From: Ramlibacter sp.
Lineage (GTDB): Bacteria; Pseudomonadota; Gammaproteobacteria; Burkholderiales; Burkholderiaceae_C
Reading direction: 5' to 3'
DNA: 10,826 nucleotides
Assembly (NCBI GenBank): GCA_021156245.1
Contig: JAJNBO010000224.1
Coordinates: forward strand, 1 to 10,826
Shown: piece by piece, positions 1-6,574 of the stretch
How positions within the stretch are numbered: position 1 is the first letter of the stretch
Layout: each line of letters begins with the position of its first letter
Notes under the pieces: model-generated
Told to the model about the DNA's origin: nothing
The model's database searches: none
The model's input: only the letters and a program-made list of their open reading frames with translations
Position numbers and translations under genes: made by a program

Positions 1-2739
<2,739 letters not shown>

Positions 2740-2795
2740 TGGGTCATTATGGAAGAACAGCCCCTAAACTCGGGGCCACAACGAAGAGGGGCTGC
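2740..2795. promoter_or_regulatory. Divergent promoter/operator region between hydantoinase and TRAP genes
   Basis: Only 56 bp separate the two divergent start codons, so promoters for both directions must lie here or inside the coding ends. It contains a perfect 7-bp inverted repeat, CAGCCCC (2758-2764) and GGGGCTG (2788-2794), with 23 bp between the arms. The right arm overlaps the end of the dctQ ribosome binding site (GAAGAGGGG, 2783-2791), so a protein bound there, or an RNA hairpin, could reduce dctQ translation. TAAACT (2765-2770) is a weak -10 candidate without a convincing -35. The repeat is seen directly; an operator role is inferred. Confidence 0.4.
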
Positions 2796-3305
2796 ATGCG
2801 ACGATTGCTGGACTTCCTGTACGACGCCTCCGCCTGGCTGGCGGCCCTGGCGATGGTGGGCGTGCTCTTGATGGTGCTCCTGTCCATCGTGAGCCGGCAG
2901 CTCGGGTTCCACGTTCCCGGCACGGACGCCTATGCAGGCTATGCCATGGCGGCGGCCGGCTTCCTGGCGCTGGCGCACACCCTCAAGCGCAACGAGCACA
3001 TCCGGGTCACCCTGCTGCTGGGGCGGCTGCGCGGCGGCAAGCGCCGTGCCGGGGAGCTGTGGGCGCTGTCCGCGTCCGTGCTGCTCGGCGCCCTGTTCGC
3101 CTTCTATTCGGTCCGCCTCGCCTGGGTGTCGCGCAGCATCAACGACATCTCCACGGGCAACGATGCCACCCCCTTGTGGATTCCGCAGGTCGCGATGGCC
3201 GTCGGCACGCTGATCCTGCTGGTCGCGCTCGTCGACGAATGGATGCTGGAGCTGCGTGGCCAGCGCAAGTCGATCGAGACCGAAGAGGCGCTGCACAATG
3301 AATGA
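2796..3305 (+). CDS. dctQ: TRAP transporter small membrane subunit (DctQ family)
   Basis: 169 residues, the usual length for the four-helix DctQ/small subunit of TRAP transporters, which sits with DctM in the inner membrane and helps drive uptake of organic acids delivered by a periplasmic receptor. Predicted helices lie near residues 13-33, 44-62, 86-106 and 130-151. Family hallmarks are NEHIRV (66-71) after helix 2 and TPLWIPQ (125-131) before helix 4. The ATG at 2796 is chosen because GAAGAGGGG lies just upstream and the helix 1 amphipathic leader starts there; the same frame is open back to 2739 but would put coding sequence over the divergent promoter. It overlaps dctM by 8 bp (shared ATGAATGA), so translation is probably coupled. 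It is intact, unlike dctM and dctP. Specificity cannot be read from this subunit. Confidence 0.93.
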   Translation: MRRLLDFLYDASAWLAALAMVGVLLMVLLSIVSRQLGFHVPGTDAYAGYAMAAAGFLALAHTLKRNEHIRVTLLLGRLRGGKRRAGELWALSASVLLGALFAFYSVRLAWVSRSINDISTGNDATPLWIPQVAMAVGTLILLVALVDEWMLELRGQRKSIETEEALHNE

Positions 3306-4655
3306 CGTCGCCATCACCACGCTGCTGATCGTCTCGCTGTTCCTGCTGCTGGGCAGCGGCGTCTGGATCGGGCTCACGCTGGCCGGCGTCGCCTGGATCG
3401 GCATGCAATTGTTCTCGTCGCGGCCGGCCGGCGATGCCATGGCCGTCACGGTCTGGGGGGCCGCATCCAGCTGGACCCTGACGGCCCTGCCGCTGTTCAT
3501 CTGGATGGGCGAGATCCTGTTCCGTACCAAGCTCAGCGAAAGCATGTTCCGCGGACTGGCGCCATGGGTGTCCCGGCTGCCAGGCCGGCTGCTGCACACC
3601 AACGTGATCGGCTGCACCATCTTCGCCGCCGTGTCCGGCTCCTCCGCGGCCACCTGCGCGACGATCGGCAAGATGACCTTGCCCGAGCTCGGCAAGCGCG
3701 GCTACCCGCAGGAGATCACCATCGGGTCCCTGGCCGGCGCCGGCACGCTGGGGCTGCTGATCCCACCCTCGATCATCATGATCGTGTACGGGGTGACGGC
3801 GGACGTATCCATCGCGCGCCTGTTCGTCGCCGGCATCATCCCCGGCATCGTGCTCGCATCGCTGTTCTCCGGCTACCTGGCCGTCTGGGCCTTGATGAAC
3901 AAGGAGAAGATCCCGCTGCCGGAGACGGTGATGAGCTTCACCGAGAAGCTGCACGAGTCGCGGCACCTCATCCCGGTGGTGCTGCTGATCGGCGCGGTGC
4001 TGGGCTCGATCTACACCGGCGTTGCCACCGCCACCGAGGCCGCTGCCGTCGGCGTGGTCGGGTCCCTGGTGCTCAGCGCCGTGCAGCGTTCGCTGAACTG
4101 GGAAACCTTCCGCGAGTCCCTGCTCGGCGCCACGCGCCTGTACTGCATGATCGCGTTGATCCTGGCCGGCGCCGCCTTCCTGACGCTGGCCATGGGCTAC
4201 ATCGGCCTGCCGCGGCGTTGATCCTGGCCGGCGCCGCCTTCCTGACGCTGGCCATGGGCTACATCGGCCTGCCGCGGAACCTGGCCGAGTTCGTCCGCTC
4301 GCTGGGCCTGTCCCCGTTCATGCTGATGCTGGCGCTTGCGCTCTTCTACATCCTCCTCGGCTGCTTCCTCGACGGCATCTCGATGGTGGTGCTGACCATG
4401 GGGGTGATCCTGCCCACCGTGCAGGCCGCGGGCTTCGACCTCATCTGGTTCGGCATCTTCATCGTGGTGGTGGTGGAGATGGCGCAGATCACCCCGCCGG
4501 TGGGCTTCAACCTGTTCGTGCTGCAGGGGATGACGGGCAAGGAGATCACATGGATCGCGCGCGTGACCATGCCGTTCTTCTTCCTGATGTGCGCGATGGT
4601 GCTGCTGCTCTGGTTCGTGCCGCAGATAGCCACCTGGCTGCCGTCGAAGATGTGA
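3298..4655 (+). pseudogene. dctM: TRAP transporter large membrane subunit (DctM family), frameshifted by a 62-bp tandem duplication
   Basis: The large subunit is the sodium-coupled membrane channel of a TRAP transporter. The first part (3298-4221) reads 307 residues with family motifs AAVSGSSAAT (around 110-119), GTLGLLIPPSI (149-159) and TEAAAVG (246-252), then stops two codons into a duplicated block. The rest continues in another frame (4218-4655), with QITPPVGFN at 376-384 of the repaired protein. Deleting 62 nt gives one 1296-nt frame of 431 residues, the normal DctM length, with every motif in place, so the ancestor was surely intact. A ribosome binding site (GAAGAGG, 3282-3288) precedes the ATG, which overlaps the dctQ stop. 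As written, the truncated protein lacks the last third, including the second transport motif region. The TGA at 4219-4221 overlaps a possible TTG start at 4218, so a separate 145-residue C-terminal piece is conceivable. A true mutation and an assembly error cannot be told apart here. Confidence 0.88.
4153..4277 (+). repeat. Exact 62-bp tandem duplication inside dctM
   Basis: Bases 4153-4215 equal bases 4215-4277 at an offset of 62, with mismatches at both flanks (4152 versus 4214, 4216 versus 4278). The unit encodes one membrane helix (around LILAGAAFLTLAMGYIGLP). Because 62 is not a multiple of three, the second copy throws the downstream gene out of frame. The two copies are identical, implying either a recent event or an assembly artefact. 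The unit shows no transposase, terminal inverted repeats or target-site duplication that would mark a mobile element. Confidence 0.97.
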
Positions 4656-4656
4656 G

Positions 4657-5526
4657 CTAGGCCGGCACGCGCGCGTCCAGCTCCTGCAGCCAGTCCGCCA
4701 CCTCGCCGGCCACCGCACGGGCGCCCTGCCCCACGTCACCGCCCACGGCGAGCAGGTGGTCCATCCCTTCCACGATGCGCAGGCGCGCATCCGGCCGCGC
4801 GTCGTGCAGCCAGCGGGCGTGGTCGGCGGTCACCTGGGTGTCGCCGGCGCCGTGCACCAGCAGCAGCGGCTGCGCCAGTGCGCCCACGATGGCCGCGGGG
4901 TCGTGCCGGAACCAGGACATCAGGTAGGGCTGCACCGATGGCCGGAACAGCAGCACCAGCGCATCGGGCACATCCTCCACGCGACGCTGCGCCTCCAGCT
5001 CGCCGAGGGCCGCCAGCGCGGGGCCGGAGAGTTCGGCCGGCAGGTAGCCCTCGACCTGGGCGCGGATCAGCGTGGAGGCGCGCACCCCTGCACCGGCGAG
5101 GTACACCACCGCCCTGGCACCCGCCGCAGACGCTGCCAGTGCCGCGATGAGCGCACCTTCGCTGTGTCCCACCAGCACGACGTGCTCCACGCGGGGCTCC
5201 CGCGCCAGCCGCTGGGCCAGCAGCACGGCGTCGGCCACCATGTCGTCGAAACGCAGCGCTTCCTCGCTGAGCCCGGGATAGGCGCTCCCGCCGATGCCGC
5301 GCTTGTCGTAGCGCAGGCTGGCGATGCCCAGGCCGGCCAGCGCCCGCGCCAGCCGCTTGAGGCTGTCGACGGGCTCGGCCAGCAAGGGATTGTTGCCGTC
5401 GCGGTCGGTCGGGCCGGAGCCCGCGATCAGCAGGGCGGCCGTGCAGGGCCCCGCGCCCTCCGGCCACGCCAGCGTGCCGGACAGCTTGCCCCAGGAGGTG
5501 GGCACTTCCAGCGCGGATTCGTCCAT
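4657..5526 (-). CDS. Serine alpha/beta hydrolase (esterase/peptidase-like)
   Basis: 289 residues with a full alpha/beta-hydrolase catalytic set: oxyanion-side loop GSGPTDRDGNNP (36-47), RYDKRGIGGS (72-81), nucleophile elbow GHSEGA with Ser122, acid Asp229 in HGAGDTQV, and His257 in GMDHLL. The GSGPTDRDGN loop is typical of a COG1073/S33-like group of cytoplasmic esterases of unknown substrate. No signal peptide is seen. The ATG at 5524-5526 is preferred over an in-frame start at 5628, because the extra 34 residues are Arg-rich, do not resemble the family and would cover the sigma-54 promoter. No strong ribosome binding site precedes it. The gene sits between dctM and dctP on the opposite strand, an unusual place, and its stop lies one base from the dctM stop, so no terminator fits there. 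It might act on an ester or amide brought in by the transporter, but that is only a guess from position. Confidence 0.88.
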   Translation of the reverse strand: MDESALEVPTSWGKLSGTLAWPEGAGPCTAALLIAGSGPTDRDGNNPLLAEPVDSLKRLARALAGLGIASLRYDKRGIGGSAYPGLSEEALRFDDMVADAVLLAQRLAREPRVEHVVLVGHSEGALIAALAASAAGARAVVYLAGAGVRASTLIRAQVEGYLPAELSGPALAALGELEAQRRVEDVPDALVLLFRPSVQPYLMSWFRHDPAAIVGALAQPLLLVHGAGDTQVTADHARWLHDARPDARLRIVEGMDHLLAVGGDVGQGARAVAGEVADWLQELDARVPA

Positions 5527-5545
5527 GCGGCCCAATGTAGCAAAG

Positions 5546-5610
5546 GCCTTGCCGGGCCGGCGTCGGACAAGGCGGATACGGCGCACCCGCTTCGGGTTAA
5601 GCCGCATCCG
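5546..5610. promoter_or_regulatory. Inverted repeats upstream of the dctP sigma-54 promoter (candidate activator sites)
   Basis: Three symmetric elements lie between the hydrolase start and the -24 box. GCCTTG (5546-5551) pairs with CAAGGC (5568-5573) over a 16-bp gap. CGGATACGGC (5573-5582) pairs with GCCGCATCCG (5601-5610) with one mismatch, and inside that ACCCG (5585-5589) pairs with CGGGT (5593-5597). The outer repeat ends directly at the promoter. Relative to a start near 5638 these lie at about -28 to -92. Sigma-54 promoters need an enhancer-binding activator, and such dyads are typical binding sites, though usually somewhat further upstream. The repeats are seen; the role is inferred. 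Confidence 0.45.
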
Positions 5611-5627
5611 TTGGCCCGGGAATTGCA
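5611..5627 (+). promoter_or_regulatory. Sigma-54 (RpoN) promoter of dctP
   Basis: TTGGCCCGGGAATTGCA matches the sigma-54 consensus TGGCAC-N5-TTGCA/T at all but one base, with the -24 GG (5613-5614) and -12 GC (5625-5626) at exact spacing. Transcription would start near 5637-5639, about 28 nt before the dctP ATG, with the GGAG ribosome binding site at 5657-5660 inside the leader. Dicarboxylate uptake genes in proteobacteria are often RpoN-dependent, so the context fits. No RpoN activator gene is in the window. Confidence 0.7.
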
Positions 5628-5665
5628 CGTAAGCTCGACCTGTCCTGAACGATCACGGAGCTCGC

Positions 5666-6554
5666 ATGAAATTCAAGTTCGCCCTCTCGCTGGCCGCCCT
5701 CGCCATGGCCGGCCAGGTCGCCGCCCAGACCAAGTGGGACCTTCCCGCGGCGTACCCCGCGACCAACTTCCACAGCGAGAACCTCGAGGTGTTCGCCAAG
5801 GACGTGGACCGGCTGTCCAACGGCAAGCTCAAGATCACAGATCCTGCTGGTCAATTTCCAAAACGAGTGGCAGATCTTCGGCGCGGACGGCATCCCCTTC
5901 CTGGCCGACAGCTACGACGACGCCGCGAAGCTGTGGCGCGCGCAGAAGCCGATGCTGGACAAGAAGCTGGGCGAGCAGGGCATGATGGTGCTGTACGCCG
6001 TCGCCTGGCCACCGCAAGGCATCTACACCAAGCGCACGCTCAATTCCGCGGCCGACATGAAGGGCTTGAAGTGGCGCGCCTACAGCCCGGCCACCGCCCG
6101 CATCGCCGAACTGGTGGGCGCGCAGCCCGTCACGGTGCAGGCCGCCGAGCTGTCGCAAGCCATGGCCACCGGCGTCGTCGATTCGTACATGTCCTCCGGC
6201 TCCACCGGCTTCGACACCAAGACATACGAGCACATCAAGAATTGGTACGACACGCAGGCCTGGCTGCCGAAGAATGCGGTGATCGTCAACCGCGCAGCGT
6301 TCAACGCCCTCGACAAGGCCACGCAGGACGCGCTGCTCAAGGCCGCGGCAGACGCCGAGACGCGCGGCTGGGCGGCCAGCCGCAAGACCAACACCGAAGT
6401 GCTGGAGAAGCTCAAGGCCAACGGCATGCAGATCATCACGCCCTCGGCGCAGCTGAAGGCCGACATGAAGAAGGTCGGCGACCAGATGCTCAAGGAGTGG
6501 CTGGAGAAGGCGGGCCCGGAAGGCCAGCAGCTGGTCGATGCCTACCGCAAGTAG
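5666..6554 (+). pseudogene. dctP: TRAP transporter periplasmic solute receptor (DctP family), frameshifted by a deletion near codon 58
   Basis: DctP binds the solute in the periplasm and hands it to the DctQM membrane pair. The start is ATG 5666 with GGAG five bases upstream. Residues 1-20 form a signal peptide with likely cleavage after A20 (QVAA/Q), followed by the mature start TKWDLPAAYP. The first frame matches the family to KLKIT (about residue 58) and then becomes unlike it. The family sequence resumes in another frame at 5838 (QILLVNFQNEWQIFG) and runs 238 residues to TAG 6552-6554, including the ligand-carboxylate arginine in KGLKWRAYSP (codon 6075-6077). Between the two pieces about 25 residues expected from the family (the part around SLFKxxEIKRAVQ and GQAQxGE) are absent, consistent with loss of roughly 70-80 bp. 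The first frame stays open to 6826, so the encoded product would be a wrong-frame protein of 386 residues. Mutation or misassembly are both possible. The gene is separated from dctQM by the reverse-strand hydrolase. Confidence 0.85.
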
Positions 6555-6574
6555 GCAGCTTGCGCTCCTCGCTG

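What the first reader, a model, noticed from the sequence alone, without database searches (positions are those of the whole stretch)
4153..4277. Exact 62-bp tandem duplication breaks dctM
Seen directly: bases 4153-4215 are identical to 4215-4277, and removal of 62 nt rejoins the two frames into a standard 431-residue DctM. An identical two-copy tandem can revert by slippage or recombination, so the transporter could in principle be switched off and on. It may equally be a fresh loss-of-function mutation or an assembly error.
Basis: partly seen in the sequence, partly recalled or inferred. Interest (0 to 1): 0.7.

Follow-up and report, generated by a model that had tools for sequence, protein, structure and literature searches.

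The report
Likely assembly error breaking dctM
An exact 62-base repeat splits one transporter gene in this draft genome, but the same draft breaks several unrelated genes with similar small duplications and gaps, so it is most likely an assembly fault rather than an on/off switch.

Summary
The repeat is in the sequence: 4153-4214 and 4215-4276 are identical (plus one base) and split dctM into a 307-residue N part and an out-of-frame C part. Of 127 fetched loci with both dctM halves, 125 carry them in one frame at single-copy spacing; the two split ones are the window itself. Evidence against a switch: (1) dctP of the same transporter lacks about 77 bases at 5838/5839 and is also out of frame. 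(2) The window belongs to a 556-contig, 69%-complete draft. In 778 kb of readable sequence from it there is one other exact tandem of this size, 68 bases inside mrdA; control loci (189 kb and 788 kb) hold none. (3) That sample has 12 abrupt frame switches against 3 in 977 kb of controls. Of the 11 outside the window, 8 have both pieces in one family, among them acnB, which lacks 95 bases. In-frame stops are not in excess. Local misassembly is the best explanation (0.75), genuine loss of the transporter second (0.2), switching unlikely (0.03). No reads were available.

The parts
4153..4214 (+). first copy of the exact 62-nt unit, inside dctM
4215..4276 (+). second copy of the unit, in another reading frame; base 4277 also matches
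3298..4221 (+). N-terminal dctM piece, 307 residues, stops at the TGA at 4219-4221 in the second copy
   Evidence: PF06808 positions 1-295
4218..4655 (+). C-terminal dctM piece in another frame; a TTG at 4218-4220 overlaps the upstream stop (145 residues if it were used as a start; use not shown)
   Evidence: PF06808 positions 277-413 for 4209-4652; the overlap is read from the sequence
2796..3305 (+). dctQ, small TRAP permease subunit, intact frame
   Evidence: PF04290
5666..5838 (+). dctP 5' piece up to the break
   Evidence: no Pfam match on its own
5838..5839 (+). point where about 77 nt present in relatives are missing
5839..6554 (+). dctP 3' piece in another frame
   Evidence: (PF03480 positions 74-283)

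Best explanation
The tandem is most likely a local assembly error in a fragmented draft genome. Two neighbouring stretches that really overlap by 62 bases appear to have been placed end to end without merging the overlap, so that the overlap is written twice. At 5838/5839 the opposite error would have lost about 77 bases. Shown: the exact duplication, the dctP gap, single copies in relatives, and further out-of-frame duplications and gaps in unrelated genes of the same draft. Inferred: that these have a common technical cause, and the end-to-end joining mechanism itself.
For: The genome is 3.31 Mb in 556 contigs, 69.17% complete. One other exact two-copy tandem of similar size occurs in the 121 stretches sampled from it (810,852 bases, of which 32,861 are masked): 68 nt at L249:415-551 inside mrdA, also out of frame. 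No near-full tandem of unit 12-1499 nt occurs in 17 relative loci (189,233 bases) or in 80 named loci (787,537 bases). The sampled draft has 12 same-strand frame switches in which the upstream frame stays open over 60 nt, in 777,991 bases, against 3 in 976,770 bases of control loci. Outside the window there are 11; in 8 of the 11 both pieces match one family: sulfatase, FAA hydrolase, xylose-isomerase-like, UrtB-like permease, mrdA, ABC transporter, acnB, CoA-transferase III. acnB lacks 95 nt against G011 and G037 by sequence and against G004 and G008 by match coordinates. In-frame stops flanked by coding-like codons are not in excess: 12 in own (15.4 per Mb, 0 without a start nearby) against 24 in controls (24.6 per Mb, 1 without), so the draft does not look like a generally decaying genome. 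Overlap at the joints is tiny: 1 nt at both duplications, none that I see at dctP, at most 2 nt at acnB judged on a relative.
Against: No reads, coverage or assembly log could be seen. Two breaks in one transporter is what gene loss would give; at the measured rate the window would be expected to hold about 0.17 further switches (12 / 778 kb x 10.8 kb, by hand). The control loci are centred on a dctM gene and four genomes are represented twice, so they are not a random sample. The 3 control switches were not checked against families, and 3 of the 11 own ones (L172, L239, L256) did not match one family on both sides. In the own draft the dctM matches that span nearly the whole profile in one piece are unbroken (6: C543, C390, C180, C214, C76, C554). 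A matched control from other fragmented drafts could not be fetched.
Confidence: 0.75

Rival explanations
1. The transporter is a genuine pseudogene cluster: dctM suffered a real 62-nt tandem duplication and dctP a real deletion of about 77 nt, after the transporter was no longer needed.
For: Two separate out-of-frame lesions lie in one three-gene transporter, 1.6 kb apart, while the upstream 1-2739 frame is open. The duplicated unit has no sequence change between copies, which fits a recent event.
Against: Similar lesions occur in unrelated genes of the same draft, including mrdA and acnB, and the draft has no excess of in-frame stops. A second copy of these genes in the missing 31% of the genome cannot be excluded.
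Confidence: 0.2
2. The tandem is a reversible switch: cells gain and lose one copy by slippage or recombination and so turn the transporter off and on.
For: Two identical head-to-tail copies can in principle lose one copy (general knowledge; no call tests it).
Against: Of 127 loci with both dctM halves, the two-copy form is seen only in the two that are the window. dctP is broken independently, so losing a copy would not restore the transporter. Single-strand folding of 4120-4310 is not unusual (z = -0.49; 62 of 200 shuffles fold at least as well).
Confidence: 0.03
3. The split gene works as two polypeptides: the stop at 4219-4221 overlaps a TTG at 4218-4220, so ribosomes could restart and make a separate C-terminal part.
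For: The TTGA overlap is in the sequence, and both parts match DctM.
Against: No relative has such a split, TTG is a weak start (general knowledge), and dctP is broken as well.
Confidence: 0.02

Closest known systems
DctM, TRAP transporter large permease (PF06808 / TIGR00786)
   Same: Both pieces match the family and together cover profile positions 1-413; the neighbours dctQ and dctP match theirs.
   Different: The frame is interrupted by an exact 62-nt tandem that is absent from the 125 related loci with a single frame.
Local misassembly in draft genomes (overlap written twice, or a gap closed with bases lost)
   Same: Exact two-copy tandem or missing bases, within genes, in a highly fragmented draft, at several unrelated places.
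   Different: The usual proof, read mapping, could not be made here.
Phase-variable tandem-repeat loci (contingency loci; recalled, no call)
   Same: An exact tandem whose unit is not a multiple of three lies within a coding frame.
   Different: Two copies of a long unit instead of many short units, no copy-number variation seen among relatives, and a second lesion in dctP.

Membership tests
intact DctM (TIGR00786 / PF06808) | match to the family profile | tested here: met
   N piece 183.1 bits, C piece 94.3 bits, cut-off 23.8
intact DctM (TIGR00786 / PF06808) | one continuous frame over the whole profile | tested here: not met
   two frames, stop at 4219-4221
phase-variable tandem-repeat locus | exact tandem whose gain or loss shifts the frame | tested here: met
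   62 nt, not a multiple of 3
phase-variable tandem-repeat locus | copy number differs among related strains | tested here: not met
   125 related loci with one frame at single-copy spacing; two copies only in the window's own loci.
phase-variable tandem-repeat locus | mixture of copy numbers within one population | not testable with these tools
   no reads available
phase-variable tandem-repeat locus | loss of a copy gives a working system | tested here: not met
   by sequence only: dctP of the same transporter is also out of frame; another solute-binding protein could serve, not tested
local misassembly | similar breaks in unrelated genes of the same draft at a rate above controls | tested here: met
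   12 in 778 kb against 3 in 977 kb; 8 of 11 outside the window have both pieces in one family; controls imperfect
local misassembly | reads contradict the joint | not testable with these tools
   no reads available
pseudogene by general genome decay | excess of in-frame stops in the genome | tested here: not met
   12 in 778 kb against 24 in 977 kb

The most novel reading that the evidence does not exclude
The organism really carries frequent out-of-frame tandem duplications and deletions of about 60-100 nt, perhaps as mixed states in its population, so that transporters and other genes are switched by indels with almost no flanking repeat.
Probability: 0.03. Interest if true: 0.6.

Novelty: not a real feature. 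Interest (0 to 1): 0.08.

Why it matters
If it were a switch, it would be a reversible transporter switch built on one long tandem. As it stands the value is a caution: this draft holds several out-of-frame duplications and gaps, so apparent pseudogenes in it should not be read as biology without checking reads.

Tried and rejected
A switch and a split-but-working protein were considered and set aside (see rivals). Folding of 4120-4310 as single-stranded DNA gave nothing unusual. Rfam found no match in the window at gathering scores. A promoter and terminator scan of 2600-5700 found none. A search of plasmid records with 3298-6560 found 23 records, none covering 80% of the query. A first, forward-only frame-switch survey was too noisy because antisense frames were counted: 18 switches without any ATG or GTG nearby in own, 14 in controls; I replaced it by a two-strand version.

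The three control frame switches were not checked against families. In one search the comparison for L323 and L324 came out in the wrong orientation and was not used.

Full report
Observation. Bases 4153-4214 and 4215-4276 are identical and one further base matches, so 63 bases match at offset 62. It is the longest exact direct repeat in the window. The N-terminal dctM piece (3298-4221, 307 residues) ends at a TGA at 4219-4221; the C-terminal piece continues in another frame to 4655. They match PF06808 positions 1-295 and 277-413.

Relatives. The window is contig C117 of a draft of 3,312,702 bases in 556 contigs, 69.17% complete. Of 153 loci fetched by then, 127 hold matches to both dctM halves: 125 have them in one frame with spacing for one copy, and 2 have them split, both being the window itself; 26 held only a part or no match and were not counted. 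Several loci cover the same gene, so these are loci, not species.

A second lesion in the same transporter. dctP is out of frame too. Matches to relatives break between 5838 and 5839. In the 15 of 17 fetched neighbourhoods that I lined up at this point, the relative has 77 extra bases in 13, 78 in one and 79 in one, the last two counted at hit edges that I set by hand. The two left out are L067 and L069. Losing one copy of the dctM unit would therefore not give back a whole transporter operon.

The rest of the draft. I took 120 stretches of other contigs. With the window this is 810,852 bases; 12 contigs (32,861 bases) read only N. Near-full exact tandems: the 62-nt one in dctM, a 68-nt one at L249:415-551, and two short ones of 17 and 15 nt (L213, L262). 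None occurs in 17 relative loci (189,233 bases) or 80 named loci (787,537 bases); 58 of the 80, with 552,278 bases, have titles that call them MAGs (count from the titles, bases). The 68-nt tandem lies in mrdA: the pieces match TIGR03423 at 175-335 and 312-592, and G011 has this stretch once. The search found one match to this gene in the own draft.

Frame switches. A two-strand codon model found 219 same-strand frame switches in own (777,991 bases, 109 sequences) and 198 in controls (976,770 bases, 97 loci). Most are ordinary gene borders. Switches in which the upstream frame stays open over 60 nt number 12 in own (15.4 per Mb) and 3 in controls (3.1 per Mb). The own 12 are dctP of the window and 11 others. 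Of these 11, 8 have both pieces in one family: L158 sulfatase, L211 FAA hydrolase, L215 xylose-isomerase-like, L218 UrtB-like permease, L249 mrdA, L282 ABC transporter, L297 acnB, L298 CoA-transferase III; L172, L239 and L256 do not. In most of the 8 some profile positions are missing between the pieces (for instance acnB 222 to 257, CoA-transferase 152 to 172); in mrdA they overlap, as a duplication gives; for the sulfatase no clear loss is seen. For acnB the missing stretch is 95 nt against G011 and G037 and, from match coordinates, G004 and G008. dctM itself is not among the 12, because its upstream frame stops within 60 nt.

Is the genome decaying? In-frame stops flanked on each side by 60 coding-like codons number 12 in own and 24 in controls; without a start nearby 0 and 1. 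The breaks in this draft are thus indels and not nonsense changes, and they hit genes that a free-living cell would be expected to keep, such as mrdA and acnB (expectation from general knowledge; another copy in the missing part is possible).

Reading. One technical cause covers the tandem, the dctP gap and the other breaks: stretches put end to end with their true overlap written twice, or with bases lost. I give this 0.75. Genuine loss of the TRAP transporter (0.2) is favoured by two lesions in one operon; at the measured rate about 0.17 further switches would be expected in the window (by hand), so the coincidence is mild. A switch gets 0.03 and a working split protein 0.02.

Limits. No reads, no coverage, no assembly record. 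The control loci are centred on dctM genes, four genomes are in the control set twice (L059/L076, L060/L093, L066/L075, L071/L074), and the three control switches were not checked against families. The own sample was partly chosen (14 contigs with DctM or DctP matches). Controls from other fragmented drafts could not be fetched. The protein database and the literature search gave no answers.

Noticed in passing
5838/5839: dctP lacks about 77 bases that relatives have and is out of frame.
   Followed up: yes
L249:415-551: A second exact two-copy tandem, 68 nt, breaks mrdA on contig C430 of the same draft.
   Followed up: yes
L297:728-729: acnB on contig C535 lacks 95 bases against relatives.
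   Followed up: yes
L158, L211, L215, L218, L282, L298: Further genes of the same draft are split by an abrupt frame switch with both pieces in one family.
   Followed up: partly
4218-4221: The stop of the N-terminal dctM piece overlaps a TTG in the frame of the C-terminal piece (TTGA), so re-initiation is conceivable.
   Followed up: no
L268:1-2400: Many exact direct repeats of 25-42 nt at multiples of 276 nt on contig C35 of the same draft, like a protein with long internal repeats.
   Followed up: no
L206:110-2235: Two neighbouring DctP genes, 1242 nt apart and similar in sequence, on contig C126.
   Followed up: no
L302: Relative G011 has two mrdA-like genes about 2.2 kb apart.
   Followed up: no
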